From positions 1 through 63,183 of the forward strand of contig CAJTEM010000028.1 in assembly GCA_910575255.1 (NCBI GenBank): DNA of 63,183 bases, read 5' to 3'. The stretch is from Lachnospiraceae bacterium (GTDB lineage: Bacteria > Bacillota > Clostridia > Lachnospirales > Lachnospiraceae). How positions within the stretch are numbered: the first letter of the stretch is position 1; the number at the start of each line of letters is the position of its first letter. The translations under genes were made by a program, and so were the position numbers. This document shows positions 17,295 through 52,523 of this stretch, piece after piece. Below the pieces are notes generated by a model that saw nothing but the letters and a program-made list of their open reading frames with translations, had not been told where the DNA came from and did no database searches.

Positions 17295-17693
17295 CTATAG
17301 TTCATTATTGCCATATTCAAAATAGATCTTTTTGGATATAAAATTCCACATCATTACGATCCCAGTAGAGATCACTTTTGAAAATACATAAAACACACCT
17401 AATCGTTGGGTTAATAAAACTAATATTATCTGATTTATAATTAATCCAATAATACTCAATCCAAAAAAAGAAAAAATATTTTTAATCTTAGAGTGATTAT
17501 TCTTTTGAAGAAAAACATAGTGAATGCTCAATAAATAGTTTATAATTAAGGAAACAGAGAAAGAAAAAATATTAGAAATGTAATATGGAATTTTCACAAT
17601 CTCTGTTAATAAAGCCAGCAATATAAAATCCAATCCTGTCGTTAAGCCGCCAACAATAGAAAAGTGTATAATCTGCTTAAGTATTCTTTCCAT
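17295..17693 (-). CDS. GtrA-like membrane protein
   Basis: A 132-residue protein with four membrane helices, of the GtrA/DPMS family. GtrA proteins are thought to help move undecaprenyl-phosphate-linked sugars across the membrane for attachment on the outer face. The N-terminal IIHFSIVGGLTTGLDFILLA segment and the last helix with FSKVISTGIVMMWNFISKK match the family layout, and length is normal. Its ATG follows the TAG of the GHMP kinase gene directly, so the two are tightly coupled. In the same operon a GtrB/DPM1-like GT2 (22952) and a 614-residue membrane protein (23764) could supply the other two parts of a tri-component system. Confidence 0.88.
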   Translation of the reverse strand: MERILKQIIHFSIVGGLTTGLDFILLALLTEIVKIPYYISNIFSFSVSLIINYLLSIHYVFLQKNNHSKIKNIFSFFGLSIIGLIINQIILVLLTQRLGVFYVFSKVISTGIVMMWNFISKKIYFEYGNNEL

Positions 17694-18719
17694 CTATTTT
17701 TCACCGGAATTTTTTAACATTAGTTGGTTTTGATCCCAACTCTCATGTTCGTAATAAATAACTTTAGTTCCCTCTGTTTCGAATTGAAATGGAATGTGTA
17801 TAAGGTTTTGTAATTCAGCAAGAACGGAATTTCTTTTTTCTGGTTGAACATAAAATAATAGAAACCCGCCACCACCAGCTCCTAGAATTTTCCCCCCTAA
17901 TGCACCAGCAGATATAGCTTTTTTATATAAACTATCTATTGACTCAGTACTTACATTGCTGGAAATTCCTCTTTTTAATTTCCAGGTATAATCCAGAAGT
18001 TTACCGAATTCATCTAAAGATTTTTGAGAAGTAAGAATACTTTCAGCCTCATCAACTAAAAGCAACATTTCTTTTAAATCCTTTTCCTTATCTTTAATCT
18101 TTTCCTTCATGGATATTTGTATTTGAAAAGAATACCTGGATATCCCTGTAAAAAATAACAAAAGATTTCGATTTAATTCCTGCTTCCTTGCCGGAGACAT
18201 AATTATAGGATTTACATAATATCCATCCGAATTGAAATTAATTCTGTTAAATCCGCCGAAAGAAGCTGCTATTTGATCTTGGATTCCTCCAGCTTCATTA
18301 CACAATACCCTTTCAACATGAATTGCTTCATCTGCTAATTCCTTTTTGCTTGCATGTTCACCCTTTAAAACATGAAAAGAATTTATCATGCCTACTGCAA
18401 AAGAACTGCTGGTGCCTAAACCACTTCTTGCTGGAAGGTCAGCATCGTACGATAAGCGAATCTCATGCATATCCATAAACATCATAGTATTCCTTATTAA
18501 AGGATGCTCAATTTCGTCCAAAGAATTAGGCAGTTCTATCTTAGAATAGGTAAAATGATTCGAATAATCAAAAAATCGTGGAAGATGCCTGGTGCTAATA
18601 TAACAATATTTATCAAAAGTAGTTGAAATAACACTTCCCCCATATTTATTATAAAACTCAAAAAAGTCCGTTCCACCACCGAAAAAAGACATTCGGAATG
18701 GTGTTCGTGTAATGATCAT
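17694..18719 (-). CDS. GHMP kinase, HddA-like (heptose-7-phosphate kinase)
   Basis: A 341-residue GHMP-superfamily sugar kinase resembling HddA, which phosphorylates D-glycero-D-manno-heptose 7-phosphate at C1 on the way to GDP-heptose. The N-terminus MIITRTPFRMSFFGGGTDF, the ATP-binding LPARSGLGTSSSFAVG (residues 95-110) and the late GGKILGAGGGGFLLFY motif are clear. No gmhA, gmhB or hddC gene is in the window, so either these are elsewhere or the kinase acts on another sugar such as fucose. It lies between the Gmd-like dehydratase and GtrA genes. Family confident, substrate open. Confidence 0.82.
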   Translation of the reverse strand: MIITRTPFRMSFFGGGTDFFEFYNKYGGSVISTTFDKYCYISTRHLPRFFDYSNHFTYSKIELPNSLDEIEHPLIRNTMMFMDMHEIRLSYDADLPARSGLGTSSSFAVGMINSFHVLKGEHASKKELADEAIHVERVLCNEAGGIQDQIAASFGGFNRINFNSDGYYVNPIIMSPARKQELNRNLLLFFTGISRYSFQIQISMKEKIKDKEKDLKEMLLLVDEAESILTSQKSLDEFGKLLDYTWKLKRGISSNVSTESIDSLYKKAISAGALGGKILGAGGGGFLLFYVQPEKRNSVLAELQNLIHIPFQFETEGTKVIYYEHESWDQNQLMLKNSGEK

Positions 18720-18728
18720 GTTTTACTC

Positions 18729-19763
18729 CTATCGTGTAAGAAATTCTTTACCAGTTTCTACCCTTTTACGCCAATACTCTAAAAGATCTCTCATTGTTTG
18801 TTCGTAAGGGATATTTGGTTCCCATCCTGTGTGAGACTTGAATTTACGGCAATCTGGTATCTGTAAATCAGCATCTATTGGCCGTAACCGTTCAGTTTCT
18901 TCTTCTATAGTTATGGAATCTCTCATTGGTGACATATCAATTAAAGTATGAAGTGTATCCTTAACAAGACAAGTGTAGGTTCCTCCAATATTATAATATT
19001 CTCCTGCAATAGGATTTTTTGTTACTAACATATAGTAGGCCCGAACAGCGTCTCTCACATCTGCATACGTCCGTAATGATTCTAAATTTCCCACCTTTAC
19101 GACTGGAGGGATCTTTCCTTTTTCAATCATTGCTATTTGTTTCGCAAAGGTGGATTCGTGAAACACATCTCCTCTTCTTGGTCCTGTATGTGTAAACATT
19201 CTTGTTGTAACAACAGTCATTCCATATGCTTCTGCATAATAACGTCCTAATAAATCTGTTCCTACTTTAGAAATAGCATAAGGTGATGCAGGGTGAAAAG
19301 AGCATTCTTCATGAATTCCTGTTTTAGGCTTTTTTTCAGCAGGAATTTTTCCAAACACTTCTGAAGAAGCACATATATGAATTACCGGAGAATAACTATT
19401 GTCTTGCTCTGTTTCCAACCTGACTGCTTCCAGTAATCTGCATGTTCCTAAAATATTTATATTCAATGTATCAATCGGAGCATTAAAACTGGTTAGGGGA
19501 TAACTTTGTGCCGCAAGATGAAAAATATAATCTGGCTTAATTTGCCGGATGATTTTAATTAATGACACCTCATCACTTAAATCCGCATAATCAAAAAATA
19601 ACCGCTCCTTTTTATTTACTCTATCCAATAAATGCTCTACATTGTCTAATGGACTCCTCCACCGACAAACACCGTAAATGTCCCAATTTGTTTCTTTTAT
19701 AAGAAAATCGGCCAAATGCGAACCGACCATTCCGGTAATTCCGGTAATAAGTGCTTTGATCAT
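18729..19763 (-). CDS. GDP-mannose 4,6-dehydratase-like SDR
   Basis: A 344-residue extended short-chain dehydrogenase. The Rossmann motif is ITGITGMVGSHL (Gly8, Gly11, Gly14). The catalytic set is SSE in CASSEVFG (residues 133-135; Glu135 is the dehydratase glutamate) and Tyr162-xxx-Lys166 in SPYAISKVGTD. The NTRR-like cofactor loop and the RMFTHTGPRRGD segment fit the GDP-mannose dehydratase group, including enzymes that act on GDP-heptose. The product would be a GDP-4-keto-6-deoxy sugar. Gene neighbours (ColD-like, Fcl-like, HddA-like) support a GDP-deoxysugar route. It is 9 bases from the kinase gene. Confidence 0.85.
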   Translation of the reverse strand: MIKALITGITGMVGSHLADFLIKETNWDIYGVCRWRSPLDNVEHLLDRVNKKERLFFDYADLSDEVSLIKIIRQIKPDYIFHLAAQSYPLTSFNAPIDTLNINILGTCRLLEAVRLETEQDNSYSPVIHICASSEVFGKIPAEKKPKTGIHEECSFHPASPYAISKVGTDLLGRYYAEAYGMTVVTTRMFTHTGPRRGDVFHESTFAKQIAMIEKGKIPPVVKVGNLESLRTYADVRDAVRAYYMLVTKNPIAGEYYNIGGTYTCLVKDTLHTLIDMSPMRDSITIEEETERLRPIDADLQIPDCRKFKSHTGWEPNIPYEQTMRDLLEYWRKRVETGKEFLTR

Positions 19764-19820
19764 TGCTTCCTCCCTATAGTATGTACTTTCGAAATATCCA
19801 GTATAATCATAAGAATCGAA

Positions 19821-20801
19821 TTAATCACTTGCAGGGTTTTTACGATACCAATCCATAGTTTTTTTGATTCCATCTTCTAAAGATGTAGAAGCCTTAAAAC
19901 CTAAAATGCGCTCTGCTTTTTCGACGGAGAGCCTTTTATAAGGAATCATCATTGGCATATCGGTATTATAAATAATTTCTGCATCTTCATAATTTCCGCA
20001 TCTCAAAATTATTTTCAATGCTTCCTTTATTGTTACATTTTTCCCAGATGCAAGATTAAACACTTCGTATCCTTTTGCCTTTTTTAGGGCTAATATGATT
20101 CCTTCAATAAGATCATCTATGTAAATAAAGTCTTTATAATCATTTCCGTCTCCCCAAACTTCAAAAGGATTCATCCTTTCTACAGTTTTGCGAATTAATG
20201 CTGGCATTACATGAGATTTTTTTTGTTCAAAATTGTCATATGGTCCATATAAATTATCAATTCGCAAAACAGTGATATCCATAGCTTTTAATTTTTCTGC
20301 GTACATGCGGCATACAACTTCGATAAAGCGTCTGCTCCATCCGCCAGTAAAGTATTTTTCAAATGGGTCTTCAGTAAAACCGTCTTCCTCTTTTAAAAGC
20401 TCTTTCTTGAAAGGATAAACCATACCACTGCTAATATATATACATTTTTTTACACCATTTAAATATGCCGCCTCTAAAACCCGCAAATTCAAAATCACAG
20501 TGTCGGTGACTAATTGCATCGGATTTGCAAGCATCCCCTGTGCCCCTGAAACAAAAGCAGCAGTCATAATAATATAATCTATGTCTTTGGTTACTAGCTG
20601 ACAATCCTCTTTATTAATTAAATCGGCATGTATATACGAAACTCCATTAACTGGAAAACGTGGTTCCTTGCTGTGATAAGTGGCACTGACAATTGCATTT
20701 TCTTTTACTAGCCTTTGTGTAATATTTGTTCCAATAAAGCCACTGCCACCAGTAACCAATACTTTCTTGCCAACTAACGAAAAAATCTCTTTATTGACCA
20801 T
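19821..20801 (-). CDS. SDR epimerase/reductase lacking the usual YxxxK
   Basis: A 326-residue extended SDR with Rossmann motif VTGGSGFIGTN (Gly18, Gly21, Gly24) and the serine strand YISSGMVYPFK (residues ~122-132). Where the catalytic Tyr-xxx-Lys is expected, the sequence reads TGGWSRRFIEVV, with Trp155 and Phe159. NLYGPYDNFEQKKSHVMPAL and WGDGNDYKDFIYIDDL strongly resemble GDP-fucose synthase. It may still bind a nucleotide sugar but catalyse only part of the usual epimerase/reductase cycle. It sits between the Gmd-like and ColD-like genes. Activity unknown. Confidence 0.8.
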   Translation of the reverse strand: MVNKEIFSLVGKKVLVTGGSGFIGTNITQRLVKENAIVSATYHSKEPRFPVNGVSYIHADLINKEDCQLVTKDIDYIIMTAAFVSGAQGMLANPMQLVTDTVILNLRVLEAAYLNGVKKCIYISSGMVYPFKKELLKEEDGFTEDPFEKYFTGGWSRRFIEVVCRMYAEKLKAMDITVLRIDNLYGPYDNFEQKKSHVMPALIRKTVERMNPFEVWGDGNDYKDFIYIDDLIEGIILALKKAKGYEVFNLASGKNVTIKEALKIILRCGNYEDAEIIYNTDMPMMIPYKRLSVEKAERILGFKASTSLEDGIKKTMDWYRKNPASD

Positions 20802-20834
20802 AATAAGATTCCTTTCATGTATTATCCTGATTAT

Positions 20835-22001
20835 CTAAATGCTATTTAGTAAATTGCAAAGAGCCAATATCTTATCTTCTGATAAATCTGGATAATTTCC
20901 TGTATATAACCCGTATTGATGGATGAATTCCGCATTTTTTAAAGTACTTGGATCAAAATCAGTTAATTGTTTCAGAACGAATGGTTGACGGGCAAGATTC
21001 CCTCCTCCAGCCGTGCCGCGACGAAATTCTACTGCATTATCAAGTAATTTGTTTGTTAGCTTTTGAAACAGTTCTGGATCTTGATTTCTTAATAAAATAA
21101 CAAATGCGTAATTGACAGAACCAGTCGTACAAAAATCTGTGTAGTATTTTGAAGAATCAAGGTTCTTTAAAAACAATTCAAAATTTTTCTCACGGATAGA
21201 ATTGTTCTTATCTAAACGTTTCAATTGATTTATACCTATTACAGCATTTAACTCGGTACTTCTCATGTTATAACCAGGAACAACAAATAAAAATTCTGGC
21301 CGAAGCTGTGGATATTCCGAACAAACCGCTTTTTTCATATCCTCATCTGTGCTTTCCCGGATCATTCCGTGGCTTCTGTATAGACGGCAATATTCATAAA
21401 ATCGATCATCGTCAGTGCAAATAATCCCGCCTTCAATTGTGCTCATATGATGAGCGTAATAAAATGAAAAATTGGATGCTAATCCAAAAGAGCCACATTT
21501 TTTACCATTGAACGAAGCACCATGAGATTCACAGACATCTTCAATTAGCGGAATATTTCTCTTTTGCAATTCATCCACTAATTTTTTCGTCAAACCGTTA
21601 AAGCCAAGTACGTGTGTTAAAAATACGGCTTTTGTCTTCGGGGTAATATGGTCGAGAATGGTATCATCATTCATGGCTAAATTATTCATATTAACATCAA
21701 CAAAAACGGGAGTGTGTCCTGCGGCAAAAACAGATGAAATATCACTGCTCCAGGCAATCGGGGGAACAATGATCTCTCCAATACCATAAAGATCTCGGAT
21801 TACTGACATAGTAATAAAATTAGCGGACGCGCCAGAATTCACAAAAACACTATGTTTTACCCCTAACCATTCACTCCATTGATCTTCGAATTCCTGTACT
21901 TTAGGCCCTTGTGTAAAACGATCTGTTGTTTTTAAAAAATCAATCAGAGCATCTACATCCTCTTTTATAATATTATTATTCATCAATGGTATATTTATCA
22001 T
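20835..22001 (-). CDS. ColD-like PLP-dependent 3-dehydratase
   Basis: A 388-residue protein of the DegT/DnrJ/EryC1/StrS fold. In sugar aminotransferases a lysine binds PLP after the FSFYPS strand; here the strand reads NFSFYYAHHMSTIEGG with His184-His185, the substitution known in ColD (GDP-4-keto-6-deoxymannose 3-dehydratase) and in CDP-sugar 3-dehydrases. The PLP phosphate region NSGASAN (residues 55-61), IEDVCESHGA and VPGYNMRSTELNAVIG agree. It should therefore remove the 3-hydroxyl of a GDP-4-keto-6-deoxy sugar, with glutamate, rather than add an amino group. The Gmd-like and Fcl-like genes on either side complete a GDP-colitose-type pathway. Confidence 0.85.
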   Translation of the reverse strand: MINIPLMNNNIIKEDVDALIDFLKTTDRFTQGPKVQEFEDQWSEWLGVKHSVFVNSGASANFITMSVIRDLYGIGEIIVPPIAWSSDISSVFAAGHTPVFVDVNMNNLAMNDDTILDHITPKTKAVFLTHVLGFNGLTKKLVDELQKRNIPLIEDVCESHGASFNGKKCGSFGLASNFSFYYAHHMSTIEGGIICTDDDRFYEYCRLYRSHGMIRESTDEDMKKAVCSEYPQLRPEFLFVVPGYNMRSTELNAVIGINQLKRLDKNNSIREKNFELFLKNLDSSKYYTDFCTTGSVNYAFVILLRNQDPELFQKLTNKLLDNAVEFRRGTAGGGNLARQPFVLKQLTDFDPSTLKNAEFIHQYGLYTGNYPDLSEDKILALCNLLNSI

Positions 22002-22007
22002 ACAATC

Positions 22008-22940
22008 TTACCTTCCTTCAATGTTATTCAAAAACCATAAATATTCTCGTTGCAGCCCTGTATCCAGATCTGTTTTTGGTTTCCAACCTAAGTTTAGGAT
22101 TTTACTGCTATCTAATAATCTTTTGGGCATACCATCTGGTTTTGACTTGTCGAAAATAATTTCACCATTATAGCCAACTACCTGTTTTATTCTTTTTGCC
22201 AATTCACTGATAGAAGTTGTTTTTCCCATACCGATATTTATTGTTCCTGGACCATCATATTTTTGCATGACAAATAAGCAAGCTTCTGCGGCATCATCAA
22301 TATATAAAAACTCACGCTCTGCTTTTCCACTTCCCCATATTTCGACATAAGGTAGCTTATTCTTTTTGGCATTATGAAAACGCTGCAATAAAGCAGGTAT
22401 TACATGATTATTTTTCTCATTAAAATTGTCATTTGGTCCATATACATTAGCAGGTATACAACTAATAAAAGAATCACCATATTGTCCCATATAATAATCG
22501 CATATCCTTACCCCGGCAATTTTGGCAATGGCGTATCCTTCATTTGTTGGTTCTGGCAATCCCGTCAGCAAATAATCTTCCTTTACTGGTTGTGCAGATT
22601 CCCTTGGGTAAATACAAGAAGAACCCAAATAAAGAAGTTTTTTTACACCTGTTTTATGCGCCGAAAATAAAATATTGCAGGTTATTAATAAATTTTCCAT
22701 AGCAAAGTCTGCCATATATCGGCTATTGGCGCTAATGCCTCCTACTTTAGCTGCCGCCACATATACATAATCAGGTTTTTCTTTTTCGAAAAAATTCAAA
22801 GTGGCTTGCCCGTCTGTTAGATCTAATTCTTTATGTGCAGCGGTTATGATATTACAATAGCCTGCCTTACGGAGCGTCCGGATAATTGCAGAACCAAATA
22901 ATCCTGTGTGACCGGCAACATATATTTTGTCTTGAAGCAT
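22008..22940 (-). CDS. GDP-L-fucose synthase/ColC-like epimerase-reductase
   Basis: A 310-residue SDR very close in pattern to Fcl/WcaG. Motifs are VAGHTGLFGSA near the N-terminus, LGSSCIYPRES, EPTNEGYAIAKIAG (catalytic Tyr and Lys), NVYGPNDNFNEKNNHVIPAL and WGSGKAEREFLYIDD. Fcl makes GDP-L-fucose from GDP-4-keto-6-deoxymannose; ColC carries out the matching 5-epimerisation and 4-reduction for GDP-L-colitose. Beside a ColD-like gene the second role is plausible. ATG 22940 is chosen because AGGGGG ends 7 bases upstream; GTG 22946 is possible. It is 6 bases from the ColD-like gene. Confidence 0.88.
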   Translation of the reverse strand: MLQDKIYVAGHTGLFGSAIIRTLRKAGYCNIITAAHKELDLTDGQATLNFFEKEKPDYVYVAAAKVGGISANSRYMADFAMENLLITCNILFSAHKTGVKKLLYLGSSCIYPRESAQPVKEDYLLTGLPEPTNEGYAIAKIAGVRICDYYMGQYGDSFISCIPANVYGPNDNFNEKNNHVIPALLQRFHNAKKNKLPYVEIWGSGKAEREFLYIDDAAEACLFVMQKYDGPGTINIGMGKTTSISELAKRIKQVVGYNGEIIFDKSKPDGMPKRLLDSSKILNLGWKPKTDLDTGLQREYLWFLNNIEGR

Positions 22941-22951
22941 TAACACACCCC

Positions 22952-23731
22952 CTATTGATTAACAGATTTATTATGCTGTTTTTCACGATAATGAGTATTT
23001 TTTATCATTGTCGATTTTTTTGCGAATCTCCATCTGATTGCTGGTCTTAAATATTCAAAATTTGCCCAAAATGAGTTTACACTTTGGTCATTTTCTGGCA
23101 TGCGGCAAATGGCTGGTACTTCGTGGAATTTGATTCCCAACCGTAAAGGGATAACAACTTTTTCAACATTGACAGGATGTTTCAATTCCTGAAAATTTAT
23201 GGACTGATACAGAGATGTAGGTGCCAAATGATTACCCCATGTAAAATCTGTTAATGGTGCCAAATAAAGAATTTTTAAAAATAGTTGTGAACACCAATTC
23301 CATATCATCTTTATTTTATTATAGCGAACAAAACCACCGCCCTTAAGCCAACGAGAACCTGATATGATATCACCAGGATATTTTTTAGCTAAAGCAATCA
23401 TTTCTGGCAGTTTTTCCGGTGCAGTGTCTAAATCTGGAGTAACCATACAAACATGACTGCCTTTTGCAGACATAAATCCATCTCGTATCGCACCTCCAAA
23501 ATATGGTTGCTTTTGCCATAATATTTTCAAGGGGATTCCAGCCGCAGCTGCTATCTTTTGCCCTGTTTTAATACTATCTAAACTTTCTTTTCTTGTTTTA
23601 TCACAAACAACAGCTATAAATTCTTCTATATCACAGTGATTATTCATTTCTAAAATCATTGTGATTGCCGCAACAAAAGAATCTGTTTCGGTCAATGTAG
23701 GCAATATAATACTTAGTGAATTAAACTTCAT
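22952..23731 (-). CDS. GtrB/DPM1-like GT2 (polyprenyl-phosphate glycosyltransferase)
   Basis: A 259-residue GT2 of the dolichyl-phosphate mannose synthase/GtrB type, which loads a sugar onto undecaprenyl phosphate. The pattern SIILPTLTETDSF, GGAIRDGFMSAKG, VTPDLDTAPEKLPEMI (the metal motif, DLD) and IISGSRWLKGGG matches DPM1-like enzymes, without the C-terminal membrane helices found in longer GtrB proteins. The tail is basic (HYREKQHNKS). With GtrA at 17295 and the multi-spanning protein at 23764 it may form a tri-component system. The intervening genes make a GDP-linked deoxysugar, the likely donor. The substrate is inferred from context only. Confidence 0.8.
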   Translation of the reverse strand: MKFNSLSIILPTLTETDSFVAAITMILEMNNHCDIEEFIAVVCDKTRKESLDSIKTGQKIAAAAGIPLKILWQKQPYFGGAIRDGFMSAKGSHVCMVTPDLDTAPEKLPEMIALAKKYPGDIISGSRWLKGGGFVRYNKIKMIWNWCSQLFLKILYLAPLTDFTWGNHLAPTSLYQSINFQELKHPVNVEKVVIPLRLGIKFHEVPAICRMPENDQSVNSFWANFEYLRPAIRWRFAKKSTMIKNTHYREKQHNKSVNQ

Positions 23732-23763
23732 TTGTAAACACCATCTTTCATATTGATTTGATA

Positions 23764-25608
23764 CTAATCTTGAAATATAACTCCTCGGATTTTTAATTGC
23801 TTTTTATAAAATTTAAGGCCAGGACCGCTGAATGTTATTGTGTTTATCCGAGGAGCGTTTTCATTAGAAAAGGTATTGATTACAGTTTCTTTATCATAAG
23901 GAAGTGAATTAATACAAAGTCCATTTACTAAATTTTCCGGTACAATTCGGCCGGTACGTTCTGTTCCATCCATATACCTGATTTTTATATTAACAGGATC
24001 TATTTTCCAAAATATCTTTGCTAATTTTCCGAGCCAATTTAATTCAAAATCAACAAAGATTTCTGAAAAATCTTCTACACCTATTGTAGAATCATTCTTA
24101 ACAATTGCAGTTGCTTCCGCAACTGAGTTTTTATCCTCTTTGTTATTTCCCTTTCTTAATAAAAACCAATTTGTTGTTTCATCATATTCAATAACTTCAT
24201 AATTTTGTATTACATTTTTCCAGGAAGCCGGTGTCTCCAATAATGGAATACGATTATCTATTGTCCAGAAATTTAGTATTATGTATTGAGGCGCTATTTT
24301 GCTCTCAAAGAAATCTGCTAATATTTTATCTAATTCCGGAGTATACGCCATGAAAGGATGAACCGTTGGTAATGGTATATAGGTCATATTATATTGAGCT
24401 AAATATGCTGCTTCTGAAGAAAATGTTGTTACACTTTCTTTCCCAATAATTTCGACAAATCTTTCAGGTACAGGGTGTAAACCGTCATATGCATTTTTCC
24501 TGTTCATTATTTGCTCAACCCTGAATGGAATTTGGCTGATTTTATCCTTGGTATATAAAACAGGGTTTGTGAAAGGATCATAACAAAGTATAGGAATTAT
24601 CAAAACAAAGGTAGTCATTATAACTATAGCCTTTGAAAAAAAATCTTTTACTTTCATAATTCTGGCGATTTCTTCAAAATCTAAAGCTAAGAGTGTAATA
24701 GAGAATATCGATATTACACCTGATATAGCATTATATAAATGAGCATCTGCCCGGACGAATCCATGCTTATAATAAGTAAATAATGCGGGGGTAAACCATA
24801 ATAATAAGAATGCATTATTAAACCCTTTTTTAAGAAATAGACTCAGCATAATACCAAGATAAAAGGCAATTAATGCAATACCCCATACAATATACATATT
24901 TAAGTTTGATAAAGACATAGCTACATTATAACCAGAAGAAATATACGCAGCTGTTTTCATATACATCCAAAGCGAATGTATCGAAGGATTATAGAGAATA
25001 AAAAAAACGATTGACAATGGAATTATTGATACCAATAAAATGTTGGGATACCATTTTTTTAACCTAAAATATTGAGTAATCACATATAAAAAAATCGTTA
25101 GGTAAACAGCGATAGCAACAGAAAATTTAATAAAAAATAAACTTGTTGACAAGATTATTTCAAAAGCCAACGCATATTTATTATTTTCTCGCCATAAAAC
25201 GATTAAGGCTAAAAAGGCGCAATAACATACGTAGTAGTCTGCGGAACTGGATAATTTTGAAAACAATACCATTAATAGGTTTATAATTATAATGGAGTAA
25301 CTTATTTTATATTTCTTTAACAAAAGAATCCAGAAATATAATTGGCTTACAAAAAGCATAAAATAGAAAGCAAATCCTATAACAATATTATTTTTTATCA
25401 TCATAGGAAAAGACAAAAAGCCCAGAGGACCATATGTAAAATATAATTCACTGCCAAATTTATATGTAGAAATCCCAAATTGATTTAATACATATATTCC
25501 CGTATGATCAGCACTATTCCCAAAACCAGAATAGACAAATGGAAAAGAAAGCATCCCATATATAATTGTTAATATAATAAGCTTATATTTATAATTTATA
25601 TTTTTCAT
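23764..25608 (-). CDS. Multi-spanning membrane protein, possible GT-C glycosyltransferase
   Basis: A 614-residue protein with roughly 10-11 hydrophobic helices in the first ~360 residues and a large soluble C-terminal part of ~250 residues. The layout (early short loop with charged residues SADHTG after the first helix, then many helices, then an outer-face domain) is that of GT-C glycosyltransferases or GtrC-like proteins, which use polyprenyl-phosphate sugars outside the cell. I see no polymerase signature and no exact family. It directly follows the coiled-coil methyltransferase gene and precedes the DPM1/GtrB-like GT2 gene in the operon. Role inferred from topology and context. Confidence 0.65.
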   Translation of the reverse strand: MKNINYKYKLIILTIIYGMLSFPFVYSGFGNSADHTGIYVLNQFGISTYKFGSELYFTYGPLGFLSFPMMIKNNIVIGFAFYFMLFVSQLYFWILLLKKYKISYSIIIINLLMVLFSKLSSSADYYVCYCAFLALIVLWRENNKYALAFEIILSTSLFFIKFSVAIAVYLTIFLYVITQYFRLKKWYPNILLVSIIPLSIVFFILYNPSIHSLWMYMKTAAYISSGYNVAMSLSNLNMYIVWGIALIAFYLGIMLSLFLKKGFNNAFLLLWFTPALFTYYKHGFVRADAHLYNAISGVISIFSITLLALDFEEIARIMKVKDFFSKAIVIMTTFVLIIPILCYDPFTNPVLYTKDKISQIPFRVEQIMNRKNAYDGLHPVPERFVEIIGKESVTTFSSEAAYLAQYNMTYIPLPTVHPFMAYTPELDKILADFFESKIAPQYIILNFWTIDNRIPLLETPASWKNVIQNYEVIEYDETTNWFLLRKGNNKEDKNSVAEATAIVKNDSTIGVEDFSEIFVDFELNWLGKLAKIFWKIDPVNIKIRYMDGTERTGRIVPENLVNGLCINSLPYDKETVINTFSNENAPRINTITFSGPGLKFYKKQLKIRGVIFQD

Positions 25609-25627: not shown

Positions 25628-27139
25628 CTATTTATTTGCTTTCCCTTTAAAATAATCTATAAGTTTTCTTATAGGGGAGCTAATCTTCCATGTCGTGGAA
25701 TTTATGAGTTCTTTGTATTTTTCTTTTTCCATAATCAATTCTTTTTGTATCAGCTCATAATTAGTTGTTAATTTAGAATAATCTTTCTCGATCGCTTTTG
25801 ATTTTGCATGATCAATCGCCAATTGTTTATAATTGTTTTCTAATTGTAAATAGGCTTGTTCTATCGTATTGACTTCGGTAACCTTTTGGCAAATGTGTTC
25901 TACAACACTCTTGGTATTCTCTAATTCATGAGAAAACTTAGCAGTTAAAGCGTCTTTTTCATTTTCAAGTTTCTTTACTGACGATCTCAAAAGATTACAT
26001 TCGTTTGCTTTTTGCTGAAATACATTTAGGATTTGATTTAAAGTTTCTAAAAATTTCAGATCGTTTATTGGCACTATCCACGCTTTAATATTAATAACTC
26101 CAAAAAAATCCCTGCCAATTTCTATATAATATTGAGGATCTGTTGTACAAAAAATATCTTGGACAGAACACCTGACACCATTTATCGGATAAGTATTAAC
26201 TTTTGTCCCATTAGCATATATTTCTAAATCCTTGACGATACAGGCATTGTCTTCTATGGGATCAAATCGTATAACGTTTACGCCCATTTTAGGGATTTCA
26301 AAATTATAATGATAGTATTCATTAACAAAATATTTTTTAGATATACAGTTCGATTCTGACAATAACTCAGAAGACTCTGCAAAATACATTTTAGAAAGTC
26401 TTTCCTCAACATTAGGTAAAATAACCTGTTTTGATATATTATTCTTTTTCACATAATCACTTTTCTGGGCGGTAAGAATAAACTGATAAACCTCACCAAA
26501 GGGACGCTGTTTTAAACAATCTATAAATAGGCTATTCAGTGATTGATTGTAACATTTTTGTTCAGTTGTTAACGTAGGGCACATAACGGCATCCTGAAGA
26601 ATAATATCCAGACCAGCCCTTTTCATAAACAGATCTAAATCTTCTTCTCCAAAAAAGCGTATATGGGTATCATCTAACAATCCTACGGAAGAATACCTCC
26701 AACGATTATCGTACATACTCATAATGATATCGTTATGCGTTACATTGGGGATGGATATTAATATTTTGCCATCATCTTTGAGCAGTAATGTCGAATTTTT
26801 TAATACAGATTCTGGATCGAATAAATGTTCAAGCACATCTGCAAAAATTATAAAATCAAATTTCTGATTACTATATTTCGTTAACCATTTATTTTCTGAC
26901 AAATCTGTGCATATCCCATCTTCTGCAAACTGTATGGCCTGTTTATATGACTCTTCATCGCATTCAATGATATAAACATTTGCTCCGATGACCTCTGTCA
27001 TATATCTTGTCATATACCCTGTTGAACATCCGCATTCAAGTACAAATGCGCCAGGAGATATTTGCGCCAAAATTTTCCCCTGAGATCCTTGATTTTTGAC
27101 AATCATATCCATCGGTATATCATATTTTGATATTCCCAT
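25628..27139 (-). CDS. SAM methyltransferase with C-terminal coiled coil
   Basis: A 503-residue protein. Residues ~20-180 form a class I SAM-dependent methyltransferase: FVLECGCSTGYMTRYM (motif I), a following acidic strand, FDFIIFADVLEHLFDP and ILISIPNVTH. A middle region (~230-355) looks beta-rich and may bind carbohydrate. Residues ~365-480 are a long heptad-type coiled coil, and the protein ends in STTWKISSPIRKLIDYF, a tail motif common in glycan-cluster proteins. In WbdD of E. coli O9a a chain-capping methyltransferase joined to a coiled coil sets chain length; a similar job is possible here, next to an ABC exporter. Confidence 0.8.
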   Translation of the reverse strand: MGISKYDIPMDMIVKNQGSQGKILAQISPGAFVLECGCSTGYMTRYMTEVIGANVYIIECDEESYKQAIQFAEDGICTDLSENKWLTKYSNQKFDFIIFADVLEHLFDPESVLKNSTLLLKDDGKILISIPNVTHNDIIMSMYDNRWRYSSVGLLDDTHIRFFGEEDLDLFMKRAGLDIILQDAVMCPTLTTEQKCYNQSLNSLFIDCLKQRPFGEVYQFILTAQKSDYVKKNNISKQVILPNVEERLSKMYFAESSELLSESNCISKKYFVNEYYHYNFEIPKMGVNVIRFDPIEDNACIVKDLEIYANGTKVNTYPINGVRCSVQDIFCTTDPQYYIEIGRDFFGVINIKAWIVPINDLKFLETLNQILNVFQQKANECNLLRSSVKKLENEKDALTAKFSHELENTKSVVEHICQKVTEVNTIEQAYLQLENNYKQLAIDHAKSKAIEKDYSKLTTNYELIQKELIMEKEKYKELINSTTWKISSPIRKLIDYFKGKANK

Positions 27140-29850: not shown

Positions 29851-30711
29851 CTATTTTATTCCATTTCTGGCAGTCATGATTTTTTTGATTTTTGTGTCAT
29901 TTCCTATAATGACAGGAGAGTCATACTCCCTGGTAGGAAATGCCCCGTATTGAGGTCTTATCCCCATATTTCTCTCCTTAATGAATTCTTCTATTTTATC
30001 TCCTAGTCGTGTAGCCTTTCCACTACAGCAATCAATAACTCCATCTACCTCTTTTTGAGAAATAATTGCCGTTAACTGTTCACATAATTCTGAAATATGG
30101 ATATAATCATATTGTTCATCACCATTAGTAAAAGGAAATGATTTTTTTCCTTCCTTTTCCCAACAGATAATTTTGCTCATCAAAGAATGATTCTTTTCAT
30201 CATCACCATAGACTGTAAAGGGGCGAATCCATTGTAAACATACATTTTTATCATGGATATATATCTCCAATGCTCTTTTTAAAGTCAGCTTAGATAGACA
30301 ATATAAATTTTCTGGTACAATGATACTATCAGGCTCTGTTTTACCATTTACTTTGCCATATTCTCTAAAAGATCCGGCTATAACTATATGAGCAACACCA
30401 TGATCAATCAGATTTTTTAAAAAGTTAAAATGCATGGGAAGATCTTCTAAATGTGTTGTTTTATTATGTTCAAAGCCATCTCTCCATGCTAGATGAACAC
30501 AAATATCCGGAGCATTAAAAGTTTGATATAGTTTTTCATTTTTGCTGACTTTAGTTAAATCACAGGGAATAAAAAATATCTCCTTGTTTAAATTTGTATT
30601 TAATATATCAGTAGCAATGACTTGAAACTGCGCTAATTGAATAAGATGATTTGCGAAATGACTGCCAATATAGCCATTAGCGCCTGTAATTAATACTTTA
30701 TTTATCATCAA
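29851..30711 (-). CDS. NAD-dependent epimerase/dehydratase (SDR)
   Basis: A 286-residue short extended SDR. The Rossmann motif is ITGANGYIGSHF near the N-terminus. AGSFREYGKVNG and LYCLSKLTLKRAL (Tyr-xxx-Lys) form the catalytic part, and WIRPFTVYGDDEKNHSL is the usual nucleotide-sugar loop. It is shorter than average, with a reduced C-terminal domain, as in CDP-abequose/paratose-type reductases. It probably reduces or epimerises a nucleotide sugar. The ATG overlaps the stop of the preceding GT2 gene by 4 bases, which suggests coupling. The product is not identifiable. Confidence 0.85.
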   Translation of the reverse strand: MMINKVLITGANGYIGSHFANHLIQLAQFQVIATDILNTNLNKEIFFIPCDLTKVSKNEKLYQTFNAPDICVHLAWRDGFEHNKTTHLEDLPMHFNFLKNLIDHGVAHIVIAGSFREYGKVNGKTEPDSIIVPENLYCLSKLTLKRALEIYIHDKNVCLQWIRPFTVYGDDEKNHSLMSKIICWEKEGKKSFPFTNGDEQYDYIHISELCEQLTAIISQKEVDGVIDCCSGKATRLGDKIEEFIKERNMGIRPQYGAFPTREYDSPVIIGNDTKIKKIMTARNGIK

Positions 30712-31748
30712 TGTAAACCAACCCTCTTTAAAAGTTTAAAACACCAGTTATAAATTTCCCAAAATCGGCTAACCTCATGGTATTTTTTCTCGTTTAAAAG
30801 TTTCAATGATATTTTTCCATAAAATTTCATAAAAGGATTTCTATTTTTAGTCAATCTCAAAAAAGATTGTGATTCCATAAAATCCGGAAAAAGCTCAAAT
30901 ACACGTTCCATGAAGGCGGAAAGGAGTCTTTCTCTCTCATATATATTATCTATTTCCCGTATTGGGTACATGGCGATAGCAAGAATCTGGTGATAAAACA
31001 AAGTATCCTTTAATAACTGTTGGTTGTATGCACTCTCTGTCCCCATACGTTCAAGAGCAAGTTTTACCGCATCCAAAATCACAAATCTGCTTTCGTTGAA
31101 TCGACCATTTTGAATCGAACCATTTCTCTGGAAATAATGATAATATGGAGTGCGAATAATGGTTATTTTACGGGCACGACTCAAAATAACTGGCGTAACG
31201 CAAACGTCTTCATTATTCATCCCCACAGGAAATTCCAAGCCATCATAAAGATTCCTTCGTATTAGCTTATTCCATGAAGCTGGCATTACCCAAGTGTCAA
31301 GAATCTGGCAATATAATGAGCTCGATTCACCCGAGGAACAAAACACCCGCTTTTGCGGCGTGCCGTCCTCATAATCCATAAAAATATCGCAGACCACAAC
31401 ATCAGAATTTTCTTGATGAGCTTTGCTGAGCATATCTCTGTATATACCAGGTTCAATATAATCATCTGAATCAAGAAAAATCACAAAATCGCCTTTAGCT
31501 TTCGTAAGTCCATAATTTTTCACATCAGAGAGTCCGCCATTTTGCTTCTTATAATATTGAAATACATTTGGATTCTCTTCTATGTATCGAAGGATGATTT
31601 CTTCTGAATGGTCAGGGGAACCATCGTTAATTATCAAAACCTCCATTCGATTGTCAATTGCCTTTAAAACCGAATCCAGACATTTAGAAAGATATTTTTC
31701 TGTTTTATACACAGGGATAATAATGGATAACTCTTTTCTACAGTCCAA
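30708..31748 (-). CDS. Family 2 glycosyltransferase
   Basis: A 346-residue GT2 of the common capsular type. LSIIIPVYKTEKYLSKCLDS, VLIINDGSPDHSEEI, NGGLSDVKNYGLTKAKGDFV and the metal motif FLDSDDYIEPG (residues ~89-99) are textbook. EDVCVTPVILSRA is the later acidic motif. The C-terminal ~120 residues form an accessory helical region. It overlaps the upstream GT2 gene by 11 bases and the downstream SDR gene by 4, so translation is tightly linked. It adds a sugar to the growing chain on the cytoplasmic side; donor unknown. Confidence 0.93.
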   Translation of the reverse strand: MDCRKELSIIIPVYKTEKYLSKCLDSVLKAIDNRMEVLIINDGSPDHSEEIILRYIEENPNVFQYYKKQNGGLSDVKNYGLTKAKGDFVIFLDSDDYIEPGIYRDMLSKAHQENSDVVVCDIFMDYEDGTPQKRVFCSSGESSSLYCQILDTWVMPASWNKLIRRNLYDGLEFPVGMNNEDVCVTPVILSRARKITIIRTPYYHYFQRNGSIQNGRFNESRFVILDAVKLALERMGTESAYNQQLLKDTLFYHQILAIAMYPIREIDNIYERERLLSAFMERVFELFPDFMESQSFLRLTKNRNPFMKFYGKISLKLLNEKKYHEVSRFWEIYNWCFKLLKRVGLH

Positions 31749-32682
31749 ACCGAATTCGCTCTCTTTCTCTACGATCTAGCATTTTCTTCTTTGTTTCATC
31801 AGAAATCGGATAGTGTTCCAAGGCATAATTTTGAATGCGTATGATTTCTTCATATTCCTTTTTGTGTGTTGTAGACAGAGTCATCCCCTGTGACTGCATA
31901 CGATGGTAGTTCAAAGACTGGCTATTATAAACAATTTTCCCCAATTCCAGTATCCGCATATAGATATACCAATCTCCAGCCAGTCTGAATTCTTTTGCTT
32001 TTTCAAAAAAATCCTGGTAATTTCCATTTCGAAAGACTACACTGGACACATTTGCTATCGTATTATTGATGCACATGGTCTCTGTAATTTCCGTAATACC
32101 GTTCCGAATGTAGTTATCATCCCATTTGCCACAGTTCGTCTGGTCAATCCATGGTCTCAAATCTCCCATTAATATATTGTTTTTTTCATCCATAGTTAAT
32201 GATTCGCAATAGGAAATGACCGTTCCTGGATCTTCAAATCCTTTTATCACTGTTTCCAGAAACAAAGGGCTGCAGCTGTCATCTGCTTCTGCTATCCATA
32301 TATAATCACCGCTTGCCTCGGTAAACGCCTTTTGCCATTGGGCAAAAACACTACCACTGTTCTTTTCATTACAGATCAAACGAATAGGGAATTCTGTATT
32401 TATATGTTTTATCTTTTGGCGAATAACTTCTACGCTGTTGTCTGTGGAACAGTCATCAAGGATAATCAGTTCATGAATTGGATAGCTCTGAAAAAGTACT
32501 GAATCAATTCGTTCTATTAAGTATTGTTCATAATTGTAATTAGGTATTATAACGGATATTTTATACGGATTTGAAATCATCAACTTTTCTACAATATTAG
32601 AGTAAGTATCGGTTTTGGCTCCTGTTCTTTTGCCCATCCTTTGTTTCATCCATTTACGAATTGAACATCTCACTTTTATCAC
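31738..32682 (-). CDS. Family 2 glycosyltransferase
   Basis: A 314-residue GT2. After a basic N-terminal leader come KISVIIPNYNYEQYLIERID, LIILDDCSTDNSVEVI, the metal motif WIAEADDSCSP and later GDWYIYMRILELGK. The frame is open up to 32748, inside the ABC ATPase gene, but GTG 32682 has AAGGTG six bases upstream and follows the ATPase stop, so it is the better start; ATG 32580, just before the GT fold, is also possible. It lies between the exporter ATPase and the next GT2 in the operon. Donor unknown. Confidence 0.9.
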   Translation of the reverse strand: MIKVRCSIRKWMKQRMGKRTGAKTDTYSNIVEKLMISNPYKISVIIPNYNYEQYLIERIDSVLFQSYPIHELIILDDCSTDNSVEVIRQKIKHINTEFPIRLICNEKNSGSVFAQWQKAFTEASGDYIWIAEADDSCSPLFLETVIKGFEDPGTVISYCESLTMDEKNNILMGDLRPWIDQTNCGKWDDNYIRNGITEITETMCINNTIANVSSVVFRNGNYQDFFEKAKEFRLAGDWYIYMRILELGKIVYNSQSLNYHRMQSQGMTLSTTHKKEYEEIIRIQNYALEHYPISDETKKKMLDRRERERIRFGL

Positions 32683-32692
32683 TTTATTCACC

Positions 32693-33430
32693 TTAATGCT
32701 GATTCCAATATTCTCGATAAGCTTCACAAACAACCGCTGCTGTATCAACCATTTTTATCTTATGATCTTCCAGCCAAACAACCCTTTCACACATTTGTTC
32801 TATCTGCGCAATGGAATGAGAGACAAATAATACTGTAGTGCCTCCGCTCATTAATTCGAGCATCCGATCTTTGCTTTTATTTTGAAAACCGGCATCCCCC
32901 ACAGCTAGAATTTCATCTACGATTAGTATTTCTGGCCTGACTACCGTAGCAATTGAAAATGCAAGTCTCATCAACATGCCAGAGGAATAGTTTCTAATTG
33001 GCATTTCAATAAAATCTTTTAGTTCCGAGAAATCCAAAATTTCATCATATTTACTATCTAAAAACTCTTTACTATACCCAAGAATAGCGCCATTTAAATA
33101 AACATTTTCTCGTCCGCTCAATTCCTGGTCAAATCCAGAACCAAGCTCTAACATTGGAACAATGTTTCCATACGTATTTACTTTACCAGCAGTTGGTTTT
33201 AAAACACCTGCAATTATTTTAAGTAATGTACTTTTTCCTGCGCCATTTTTCCCGACAATTCCCATTACTTCACCTTTGTTTACAGTGAAACTCACATCGT
33301 CAAGAACTGTTAATTCTTCATATATTAATTTTTTCCTTAATATGGCTACCACATATTCTTTTAAACTCATTACTTTATCATTTGCCATGCGAAAACGCAT
33401 TGTCACATGCTCGACATCTATCATTTTCAA
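32693..33430 (-). CDS. Polysaccharide ABC exporter ATPase, short Wzt
   Basis: A 245-residue ATP-binding protein of the Wzt/TagH/KpsT class. Walker A GKNGAGKSTLL begins at Gly60; the signature is NYSSGMLMRLAFSIA, Walker B is ILIVDEILAVGD, and the switch histidine lies in TVLFVSHSIAQI. It has no extra C-terminal carbohydrate-binding domain, unlike the second ATPase at 57525. It pairs with the permease gene 9 bases upstream (33440-34855). Together they export an undecaprenyl-linked glycan. It ends just before the GT2 gene. Confidence 0.95.
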   Translation of the reverse strand: MKMIDVEHVTMRFRMANDKVMSLKEYVVAILRKKLIYEELTVLDDVSFTVNKGEVMGIVGKNGAGKSTLLKIIAGVLKPTAGKVNTYGNIVPMLELGSGFDQELSGRENVYLNGAILGYSKEFLDSKYDEILDFSELKDFIEMPIRNYSSGMLMRLAFSIATVVRPEILIVDEILAVGDAGFQNKSKDRMLELMSGGTTVLFVSHSIAQIEQMCERVVWLEDHKIKMVDTAAVVCEAYREYWNQH

Positions 33431-46521: not shown

Positions 46522-46539
46522 TTTGCTATTTTAGTCCTC

Positions 46540-47553
46540 TTAACATTTTACATTTAGGAATCGTGCTTTTCCATGAAACTTCAGTGGTATAGAATTAGCA
46601 GGAATAAAGAAACAATCCCCTTTAAAAATTTTCAGATGATCCCCATCTTCCATAAACAGAATACCACATCCATCGAGACATAAGAACACCTGAAAAGAAT
46701 TTTCTGAGGTTGGAAATTTTGCCAGCTCTCGTACAGATTCCGTGTTGAGTATATATCGCTCAACCTGAAAATATTTACAATGGCATAGTTTTTCAGACAT
46801 GCCACCCTTTTTGTAATGAAGCAGTTTCAGTGGTTGCTGTGGTTTGAAACTTTGTTTTAAATTTGCCACATCTAATGCCTTATTAATGTGAAGTGGCCGA
46901 GGATTTCCGTCCATTCCTTTGCGATTATAGTCATAAAGACGGTAGGTAAGATTTGAATTTTCCTGGATTTCGGCAATTAATATTCCGGCTCCGATTGCGT
47001 GAACCATTCCTGCTTTAATAAAGAAAACATCATCCTTTTTTACTTTGATTTTTTGAAGATGTTTTTCTATAGTGCCATTTAGCAGGTTATTACGAAGGCA
47101 TTCTTTTGTCATATCATGATTAAAACCATAAATCAGTTGAGAACCCGGTTTGGCCTCAAGTACATACCACATTTCCATTTTTCCTAACTGCCCATGTTCG
47201 TTTTTTTTCGCATAGTCATCGTTTGGATGTACCTGAACTGATAAGTTATCCTTGGCATCGATAAACTTAATCAAAATTGGTAAGCTCCCTTTGTTTTTCG
47301 AATGCATTCCCAGATATTCCGGATGCTCAGACAGTAATTGTGACAGACTTTTTCCTTGATGCATTCCACTTGCGACGAAACTAGGCCCATCTGTATGCGT
47401 TGAACATTCCCAGGTTTCGGCCAGGGGGGTCATTGCAATTTCTTTATTAAATTTGGTTTGAAGGCGGCTGCCTCCCCATAAGTAATCCTTTCCTGTTGGA
47501 GATAATAAAAATGGCTTAATCCTCCAATTTATATTTAATTTTGTCATGAACAT
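46540..47553 (-). CDS. manA: Mannose-6-phosphate isomerase, class I
   Basis: A 337-residue zinc-dependent type I phosphomannose isomerase of the short Firmicutes form. KPFLLSPTGKDYLWGGSRL, LAETWECSTHTDGPS, KFIDAKDNLSVQVHPNDDYA and GKMEMWYVLEAKPGSQL are family motifs; the His/Glu zinc ligands are in VQVHP and MEMWY. It interconverts fructose-6-P and mannose-6-P, feeding GDP-mannose. ATG 47553 follows AAAAGG; ATG 47547 is also possible. The start lies 38 bases inside the preceding cupin gene, so the two are coupled. Confidence 0.93.
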   Translation of the reverse strand: MFMTKLNINWRIKPFLLSPTGKDYLWGGSRLQTKFNKEIAMTPLAETWECSTHTDGPSFVASGMHQGKSLSQLLSEHPEYLGMHSKNKGSLPILIKFIDAKDNLSVQVHPNDDYAKKNEHGQLGKMEMWYVLEAKPGSQLIYGFNHDMTKECLRNNLLNGTIEKHLQKIKVKKDDVFFIKAGMVHAIGAGILIAEIQENSNLTYRLYDYNRKGMDGNPRPLHINKALDVANLKQSFKPQQPLKLLHYKKGGMSEKLCHCKYFQVERYILNTESVRELAKFPTSENSFQVFLCLDGCGILFMEDGDHLKIFKGDCFFIPANSIPLKFHGKARFLNVKC

Positions 47554-47926: not shown

Positions 47927-47970
47927 AAATTTATCTCCAAAATATTTAGAATTTTAAGGAAATGCTTTAA

Positions 47971-48939: not shown

Positions 48940-48963
48940 ATTTCTTAGCTCCTTTTTCATAAT

Positions 48964-50268: not shown

Positions 50269-50288
50269 ATTATTTCTCCTTAATATTT

Positions 50289-51359: not shown

Positions 51360-51401
51360 ATGACCCTCCATATTGTATATGGATTACCAGTAATAAGTGA
51401 A

Positions 51402-52493: not shown

Positions 52494-52523
52494 TATTTTT
52501 TAATCCATAAGATAATCTAACGG

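What the first reader, a model, noticed from the sequence alone, without database searches (positions are those of the whole stretch)
17295..25608. Possible tri-component system for an outer-face dideoxysugar
The operon holds a GtrA-like protein (17295), a DPM1/GtrB-like GT2 (22952) and a 614-residue multi-spanning protein with GT-C-like layout (23764). Between them lie five sugar genes: HddA-like kinase, Gmd-like dehydratase, a degenerate SDR, a ColD-like 3-dehydratase and an Fcl-like reductase. Known tri-component systems (GtrABC of phages, lipoteichoic/wall glycan decoration in Firmicutes) usually load glucose or GlcNAc. Here the enclosed pathway suggests that a GDP-derived 3,6-dideoxy sugar is put on undecaprenyl phosphate and added outside. 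That combination would be new to me in Clostridia.
Basis: partly seen in the sequence, partly recalled or inferred. Interest (0 to 1): 0.8.

Follow-up and report, generated by a model that had tools for sequence, protein, structure and literature searches.

The report
Outer-face dideoxyheptose glycosylation gene set
A bacterial gene cluster appears to make an unusual seven-carbon dideoxy sugar, load it on a membrane lipid and attach it outside the cell to a surface sugar chain: a known strategy, but with an unexpected sugar and an unclassified transferase family.

Summary
All eight genes are real and lie head to tail in one minus-strand operon. The three-component reading holds: 23764 folds as a GT-C glycosyltransferase (AF2 pLDDT 83.5, pTM 0.87; the 29 top-Z solved matches are all GT-C enzymes), 22952 is a DPM1/GtrB-type GT2 without membrane helices of its own, and 17295 is GtrA. 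The main correction is the sugar. The "Gmd-like" gene matches GDP-D-glycero-D-manno-heptose 4,6-dehydratase far better than GDP-mannose dehydratases. In 7 of 7 close relatives it lies within 4 kb of phosphoheptose isomerase. The one strong relative of the ColD-like 3-dehydratase in 392 sampled order genomes also lies among heptose genes. The remaining GDP-heptose genes are on another contig of this genome. The predicted product is a GDP-3,6-dideoxyheptose (a Campylobacter jejuni capsule sugar), not colitose, probably made without the cupin epimerase C. jejuni uses. Two relatives repeat heptose genes plus this GT2 with other GT-Cs (GtrII, YfhO). The 23764 family (54 loci found) has no Pfam model in the 43 members scanned. 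No enzyme was tested; sugar loading and outside transfer are inferred. New variant of a known kind.

The parts
17295..17693 (-). GtrA/DPMS transmembrane-domain protein (132 aa): putative polyprenyl-P-sugar flippase or the membrane half of a split DPM synthase
   Evidence: PF04138 84 bits, cut-off 26.1
17694..18719 (-). HddA-type heptose-7-phosphate kinase family (GHMP kinase, 341 aa)
   Evidence: NF049969 153.5 bits, cut-off 600, so well below; best solved matches 'putative sugar kinase' 4usm E 5.7e-41 and heptose-phosphate kinases 4n3o, 3k85
18729..19763 (-). GDP-D-glycero-D-manno-heptose 4,6-dehydratase-like (344 aa)
   Evidence: 7us5 E 1.3e-109, 370 bits; 1db3 GDP-mannose 4,6-dehydratase 133 bits; gmhA nearby in 7 of 7 close relatives
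19821..20801 (-). Extended SDR with degenerate active site (YxxxK reads GxxxR); role unknown, perhaps epimerase or partner subunit
   Evidence: PF01370; alignment A4
20835..22001 (-). ColD-type PLP-dependent C3-dehydratase (388 aa), His184 where aminotransferases have Lys
   Evidence: 2gms E 1.8e-56, with the His of ColD conserved in the alignment; His184 located
22008..22946 (-). GFS/ColC-type C5-epimerase and C4-reductase (312 aa) with intact Cys111/His181 dyad and Tyr138/Lys142
   Evidence: NF047922 434 bits, cut-off 500; motif positions; residue roles from PMC7949155 passages
22952..23731 (-). DPM1/GtrB-type GT2 (259 aa), predicted polyprenyl-phosphate sugar synthase; no hydrophobic membrane segment of its own
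   Evidence: PF00535 34.3 bits; 5mlz dolichol-P-mannose synthase E 4.3e-5; no segment by hydropathy
23764..25608 (-). GT-C glycosyltransferase (614 aa): GT-C core residues 1-489 and a C-terminal beta-sandwich 490-614
25628..27139 (-). SAM methyltransferase (503 aa), operon neighbour
   Evidence: PF13489 69.4 bits
27272..27994 (-). RgpF-like protein, C-terminal part of the family, operon neighbour
   Evidence: PF05045 86.2 bits
28011..29837 (-). Rhamnan synthesis protein F family, operon neighbour (backbone glycan)
   Evidence: PF05045 471 bits
29851..30711 (-). SDR, operon neighbour
   Evidence: PF01370 103 bits
30708..32748 (-). Two GT2 glycosyltransferases, probably of the backbone glycan (30708-31748 and 31738-32748)
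   Evidence: PF00535 112.8 and 94.5 bits
32693..34855 (-). ABC exporter, probably of the backbone glycan: ATPase (32693-33430) and permease (33440-34855)
   Evidence: PF00005 82 bits, PF01061 67.4 bits

Best explanation
The cluster makes GDP-3,6-dideoxyheptose and uses it in a three-component outer-face glycosylation system. Steps: (1) GmhA, HddA, HddB and HddC, encoded on contig C6 (with the window's own HddA-like kinase), make GDP-D-glycero-D-manno-heptose. (2) 18729 removes water to give the 4-keto-6-deoxyheptose. (3) 20835 removes the C3 hydroxyl with PLP, as ColD does. (4) 22008, whose epimerase dyad is intact, inverts C5 and reduces C4, as ColC does, giving a GDP-3,6-dideoxy-L-heptose (xylo by analogy with colitose; stereochemistry is a guess). 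(5) 22952 with GtrA 17295 moves the sugar onto polyprenyl phosphate and GtrA helps it cross. (6) The GT-C 23764 adds it outside to the glycan exported by the operon's ABC transporter. Shown here: gene content, families, motifs, predicted fold, gene neighbourhoods. Inferred: every reaction, the link of donor to GT-C, the acceptor.
For: Dehydratase much closer to the heptose enzyme than to mannose enzymes. gmhA in 7 of 7 clusters of its 79-82% identical relatives, fused hddC-gmhB in 5 of 7 (one cut by the contig end), kinase in 6 of 7. The only other ColD-like gene at E 1e-70 in 392 order genomes lies with hddA, hddC-gmhB and gmhA. The genome has a gmhA-hddA-hddB-hddC set at C6 and no Gmd over the family cut-off. 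C/H dyad intact in 22008 with no cupin match in the window, and likewise in the GFS-like gene of L113; the two GFS-like genes of L048, which has a cupin, lack the Cys, and relatives L022, L023, L025 with cupins have RmlD-type reductases. GT-C fold. The same GT2 is near the heptose genes in two relatives, with GtrA and GtrII in one and YfhO in the other.
Against: No complete eight-gene set in the other sampled genomes. gmhA, hddB and hddC are not in this operon, so supply is in trans. The window kinase (153 of 600 bits) scores lower than the C6 kinase (288 of 600) to the HddA model, so its substrate could differ; 22008 is also below its cut-off. 19821 has no assigned step. GtrA lies at the far end of the gene set, with five genes between it and the GT2. 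The closest Lachnospiraceae relatives of the GT-C (L050, L052, L091, L097) have no match to the GT2 or GtrA profiles at E 1e-10 in the held flanks; L097 has two weak GT2 matches of about 20 bits. Only 8 of 54 GT-C loci have a GT2 just upstream. Campylobacter epimerases and reductases of this pathway also act on mannose forms in vitro, so homology does not fix the sugar.
Confidence: 0.55

Rival explanations
1. Colitose (or another GDP-mannose-derived 3,6-dideoxyhexose) is the sugar; the three-component part is unchanged.
For: ColD-type 3-dehydratase and GFS/ColC-type enzyme are the two later colitose enzymes. GDP_Man_Dehyd Pfam match for 18729. Campylobacter heptose epimerases and reductases accept mannose forms in vitro.
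Against: 18729 scores 370 bits to the heptose dehydratase and 133 to a GDP-mannose dehydratase; no protein in the genome passes the Gmd cut-off (best 162 of 415 bits; assembly 96.7% complete); HddA-type kinase in the operon; gmhA linkage in 7 of 7 relatives.
Confidence: 0.15
2. The dideoxyheptose is built into the backbone in the cytoplasm by an ordinary GT2 of the operon, while GT2 22952, GtrA and the GT-C add a different, common sugar (glucose, GlcNAc or galactose).
For: Gram-positive systems listed in PMC8035078 Table 1 add Gal, Glc, GlcNAc or unknown sugars. The operon has two more GT2 genes. In the four other genomes with this GT2 no close relative of the heptose dehydratase was found beside it.
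Against: GT2 and GT-C genes are contiguous with the sugar genes here, and the GT2 is near the heptose genes again in G375 and G363; an overlap of 2 among 391 other genomes with 7 and 6 carriers has P 0.004 if genomes were independent.
Confidence: 0.2
3. A 6-deoxyheptose (3-OH kept) or an amino sugar is the product because 20835 acts otherwise than ColD.
For: DegT family includes many aminotransferases; no strong ColD-like gene lies in the stretches fetched around the seven close relatives of the dehydratase (one weak match of 115 bits in L023).
Against: His184 aligns to the ColD histidine that replaces the aminotransferase lysine, and ColD structures are the best solved matches (195 bits against 112 for perosamine synthetase).
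Confidence: 0.07
4. The cluster is decayed or silent: the degenerate SDR and missing gmhA/hddC mark a broken pathway.
For: 19821 lacks the SDR Tyr and Lys; no gmhA, hddB or hddC in the operon.
Against: All ORFs are intact with tight spacing; gmhA, hddB, hddC are present at C6; the Azospirillum SDR next to its heptose-type dehydratase also lacks the Tyr.
Confidence: 0.05

Closest known systems
Multi-component transmembrane glycosylation systems of Gram-positives (GacIJKL of Streptococcus pyogenes, CsdA/CflA/CsdB of Lactococcus lactis; PMC8035078)
   Same: Polyprenyl-P sugar synthase, GtrA or Wzx flippase, GT-C, decorating an ABC-exported rhamnose-type glycan; GacI is a GT-A enzyme that works with a separate membrane protein, as 22952 seems to
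   Different: Table 1 of that review lists only Gal, Glc, GlcNAc or unknown sugars; the GT-C here has no Pfam match, as some listed there, and no PMT-2, YfhO or Scs3p match
GDP-3,6-dideoxyheptose pathway of Campylobacter jejuni HS:5/HS:11 (PMC10440746)
   Same: GDP-heptose 4,6-dehydratase, ColD-type PLP C3-dehydratase, C4-reductase, hddA
   Different: C. jejuni uses a separate C5-epimerase; here no cupin was found and the reductase keeps the GFS Cys/His epimerase dyad; loading on a lipid and addition outside (inferred) are not part of that pathway
GDP-colitose pathway (Gmd, ColD, ColC)
   Same: ColD- and ColC-type enzymes
   Different: heptose-type dehydratase in place of Gmd; heptose supply genes
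Three-component pentofuranose systems, GT136 (PMC11127046)
   Same: Lipid-P sugar, flippase and GT-C decorating an already made chain with an unusual sugar
   Different: UbiA-type synthase and MATE flippase there; GT2 and GtrA here
AftA mycobacterial arabinosyltransferase (8if8)
   Different: No sequence-level relation found; donor is a pentofuranose lipid (recalled)

Membership tests
Three-component (multi-component) transmembrane glycosylation system | GT-A-fold GT2 related to DPM1/GtrB | tested here: met
   PF00535 above cut-off; 5mlz E 4.3e-5; DLD and GSRWxxGGG motifs, the motif assignment being recalled
Three-component (multi-component) transmembrane glycosylation system | GtrA-type flippase | tested here: met
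   PF04138 84 bits against 26.1; flippase activity not tested
Three-component (multi-component) transmembrane glycosylation system | GT-C fold transferase | tested here: met
   predicted model and fold comparison
Three-component (multi-component) transmembrane glycosylation system | DxD or modified DxD in an extracellular loop of the GT-C | tested here: inconclusive
   Asp34 nearly invariant in 43 sequences just after helix 1, but no DxD there (SADHT) in the window protein
Three-component (multi-component) transmembrane glycosylation system | Sugar transferred outside from a polyprenyl-P donor | not testable with these tools
   needs biochemistry
Canonical GtrB | C-terminal transmembrane helices on the GT2 (recalled) | tested here: not met
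   no hydrophobic segment in 22952 by hydropathy
GDP-3,6-dideoxyheptose pathway | GDP-heptose supply: gmhA, hddA, hddB/gmhB, hddC | tested here: met
   all four at G000:C6 by best NCBIfam match; scores below the equivalog cut-offs (HddC 180 of 300, HddA 288 of 600, GmhA 143 of 276), HddB over the GmhB subfamily cut-off (151 of 149.6)
GDP-3,6-dideoxyheptose pathway | GDP-heptose 4,6-dehydratase | tested here: met
   7us5 E 1.3e-109; activity not tested
GDP-3,6-dideoxyheptose pathway | PLP C3-dehydratase with His in place of Lys | tested here: met
GDP-3,6-dideoxyheptose pathway | separate cupin C5-epimerase, as in C. jejuni | tested here: not met
   no window ORF matched a three-sequence cupin profile at E 1e-10; rest of the genome not searched for one
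GDP-3,6-dideoxyheptose pathway | C4-reductase of the GFS kind | tested here: met
   NF047922 434 bits of 500; Ser, Tyr and Lys present
GDP-colitose pathway | GDP-mannose 4,6-dehydratase (Gmd) | tested here: not met
   no protein of the genome over the TIGR01472 cut-off; best 162 of 415 bits, the window's own 18729; assembly 96.7% complete
Known Pfam GT-C families (PMT_2, GtrII, YfhO and others) | sequence match to the family model | tested here: not met
   window protein 0 families at E 0.05; 1 of 43 members hits PMT_2 at E 0.0041
O-antigen polymerase or flippase | Wzy or Wzx fold | tested here: inconclusive
   no such chain among the 50 rows shown in each; absence is not proof

The most novel reading that the evidence does not exclude
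A Lachnospiraceae bacterium decorates an ABC-exported RgpF-type surface glycan, on the outer face, with a 3,6-dideoxy-L-heptose carried on polyprenyl phosphate. It combines a C. jejuni-like heptose pathway shortened by a bifunctional ColC-like epimerase/reductase, a split DPM-type synthase (soluble GT2 plus GtrA) specific for GDP-deoxyheptose, and a GT-C from a broad, unclassified family. The heptose-loading module is a cassette that meets different GT-Cs (GtrII, YfhO, this one) in different bacteria.
Probability: 0.45. Interest if true: 0.72.

Novelty: new variant of a known kind. Interest (0 to 1): 0.6.

Why it matters
In the papers found here, deoxyheptoses are sugars of Gram-negative bacteria such as Campylobacter, Burkholderia and Yersinia (listings). 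A Lachnospiraceae lineage making a dideoxyheptose and displaying it through a lipid-linked three-component route would extend both fields: it gives a new donor class (polyprenyl-P-deoxyheptose), a GT-C family to classify, and a defined gene set for making and testing the sugar. It also gives a simple rule to test: an intact GFS Cys/His dyad where the cupin epimerase is missing.

Tried and rejected
Single-sequence search for the GT-C in genome contigs found no relative (19 candidate stretches), nor did 60 relatives; it took a four-sequence alignment to reach 54 loci. The same alignment in viral contigs gave none. Three marginal GT-C hits at E about 0.008 were not counted as relatives. Promoter scan: 93 sites against 91.4 expected, so uninformative. 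ColD-like and GT2 searches in plasmids gave no match at the limits used. No Wzx or Wzy chain appears among the rows shown for 23764; a missing row is not proof, so this is left as inconclusive. The colitose reading is kept as a rival, not as best. The second structure job was not used.
Full report
OBSERVATION. The eight ORFs are present as described, on the minus strand, with neighbour gaps of 0, 9, 57, 33, 6, 5 and 32 nt. They continue upstream into a methyltransferase, two RgpF-family proteins, an SDR, two GT2s and an ABC exporter: 16 ORFs from 34855 down to 17295, with one gap of 132 nt and some overlaps. The genome is 5.1 Mb in 106 contigs, 96.7% complete. G270, of the same family, has a contig of the same length (125,643 bases) as the record of 'Lachnospiraceae bacterium G11', so I place the genome in Lachnospiraceae by inference.

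THE SUGAR IS PROBABLY A HEPTOSE. 18729 matches GDP-D-glycero-D-manno-heptose 4,6-dehydratase 7us5 at 370 bits, a GDP-6-deoxy-D-lyxo-4-hexulose reductase at 187 bits and GDP-mannose 4,6-dehydratase 1db3 at 133 bits. In 392 genomes of the order, 9 (own included) have a match at E 1e-60; seven others are 79-82% identical and one 39%. In the stretches fetched around those seven, gmhA is present within 4 kb in 7 of 7, the window-type kinase in 6 of 7 (the seventh contig ends), and a fused hddC-gmhB in 5 of 7, one of them cut by the contig end (three of the gmhA genes checked against NCBIfam). For L024 the dehydratase is placed, because my ORF filter dropped it. The window operon lacks gmhA, hddB and hddC, but contig C6 has hddC, hddA, hddB and gmhA in a row; their scores stay below the equivalog cut-offs, only hddB passing a subfamily cut-off. 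The C6 kinase scores 288 and the window kinase 153 bits to the HddA model (cut-off 600). No protein of the genome passes the Gmd cut-off.

THE DEOXYGENATION AND THE LAST STEPS. 20835 is ColD-like (195 bits to 2gms; the next family, perosamine synthetase, 112), with His184 at the ColD histidine; PMC8987622 passages describe the substitution and the catalytic histidine. Its only relative at E 1e-70 in 392 order genomes, 57% identical in G261, lies in an operon with hddA, a GFS-like gene, fused hddC-gmhB, gmhA and a split transketolase. PMC10440746 (abstract, introduction, two of three parts of the results, and passages) shows that C. jejuni makes 3,6-dideoxyheptoses with a 4,6-dehydratase, a ColD-type C3-dehydratase, a separate C5-epimerase and a C4-reductase. 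Here no window ORF matches a cupin profile built from three relatives, while 22008 keeps the GFS Cys/His dyad (Cys111, His181) and Ser, Tyr138, Lys142. PMC7949155 passages state that this dyad does the C3/C5 epimerisation in GFS and that the C. jejuni reductases DdahC and MlghC, which follow cupin epimerases, have T/H or Y/R instead. The same pattern shows in alignment A4: the GFS-like gene of L113 (no cupin match) keeps Cys and His, while both GFS-like genes of L048 (cupin match) lack the Cys. The simplest reading is a ColC-like bifunctional last enzyme, hence an L-sugar. 19821 remains unassigned: YxxxK reads GxxxR; a 34% identical SDR stands next to the dehydratase of Azospirillum with V in the Tyr place.

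LINK OF SUGAR AND SYSTEM. The GT2 subfamily of 22952 occurs in 7 of 392 order genomes, own included. In 3 of 7 it is within a few genes of the heptose dehydratase: here, in G375 (HddA, dehydratase, FAD oxidoreductase, reductase, GT2, GtrA, cupin, gmhA, GtrII) and in G363 (hddC-gmhB, HddA, dehydratase, FAD oxidoreductase, cupin, reductase, GT2, gmhA, YfhO). Of the other four, three have other SDR genes beside or near the GT2 and one has none. A GtrA is in the cluster in 3 of 7: directly beside the GT2 in G375 and G331, with five genes between here. An overlap of 2 among the 391 other genomes has P 0.004 under independence, which related genomes do not strictly satisfy. For the GT-C family, a GT2 lies upstream with a gap of at most 1.7 kb in 8 of 54 loci (in five it overlaps the GT-C start by 4 nt), and a GtrA precedes it in 1 of 54. 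These GT2s score only 39-75 bits to my seven-sequence profile, and not all loci hold full flanks. In Rhizobium tumorigenes a GtrA gene lies upstream with one gene between, with UbiA-, FAD- and SDR-type genes. The four closest Lachnospiraceae loci (L050, L052, L091, L097) have no profile match at E 1e-10 in the held flanks; L097 has two weak GT2 matches. So the GT-C is not tied to this sugar; the loading module is, in part.

MECHANISM AND CONFIDENCE. Likely steps are given in Best explanation. Rough odds: GT-C 0.93; GT2 plus GtrA making a lipid-P sugar 0.85; heptose rather than hexose 0.85; C3-deoxy 0.85; that this sugar is the one loaded 0.75. The product is about 0.43 if they were independent; I give 0.55 to the main statement because the steps support each other. 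The acceptor (ABC-exported RgpF-type glycan) is inferred from operon membership.

KNOWN OR NEW. PMC8035078 (section 8 and passages) lists Gram-positive systems that add Gal, Glc, GlcNAc or unknown sugars and describes GacI working with a separate membrane protein, much as 22952 lacks helices of its own. PMC11127046 (outline, abstract and passages) describes pentofuranose three-component systems. A search of the held library for deoxyheptose terms gave 19 papers, none with a Gram-positive organism in its title (listing only); other searches (listings and openings of abstracts, capped at 8 to 20 rows) showed no heptose three-component system. Most subscription papers are missing from that library, so this is not proof of novelty. 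I file it as a new variant of a known kind.

Noticed in passing
G000:C6 (L021, L115): The genome's hddC-hddA-hddB-gmhA set is followed by a weakly PMT_2-like membrane protein, a glucose-1-phosphate cytidylyltransferase (390 bits, over cut-off), an SDR that may be a CDP-glucose 4,6-dehydratase, a ColD/RfbH-like protein and a GT2-like protein with two hydrophobic segments: perhaps a second dideoxysugar three-component system.
   Followed up: partly
window 19821-20801: SDR with GGWSRR where the YxxxK motif should be; a 34% identical SDR lies next to the heptose-type dehydratase on an Azospirillum plasmid, with V in the Tyr place.
   Followed up: partly
L023, L025, L047, L048; also L042: An FAD-dependent amine-oxidase-like gene recurs near this GT2 subfamily (4 of 6 other loci by my profile; three by Pfam), and an NAD(P)/FAD-dependent oxidoreductase is annotated next to GtrA in Rhizobium tumorigenes; its role is unknown.
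   Followed up: no
L113 (G261): Operon joining a split transketolase, two large ORFs of about 500 aa, HddA, GFS-like, ColD-like, fused HddC-GmhB and GmhA: possibly a branched or extended dideoxyheptose.
   Followed up: no
L063, L068, L071, L079: In these Cephaloticoccus and Lacunisphaera loci the GT-C family occurs in head-to-tail runs of four to six paralogs.
   Followed up: no
G000:C32 (L117): A second glycan-type cluster of the same genome with GtrA, three large multi-spanning proteins and an ABC exporter that looks, by eye, like the window's.
   Followed up: no
L041 (MT837038.1): A record deposited as unverified 'Bacteriophage sp.' from faeces carries a full-length relative of the GT-C (25% identity); probably bacterial DNA.
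   Followed up: no
window 44773-60719: A further run of minus-strand ORFs, not annotated by families here, with a second ABC-exporter-like pair (57525, 58817) matched in L024 at 43% and 55%.
   Followed up: no
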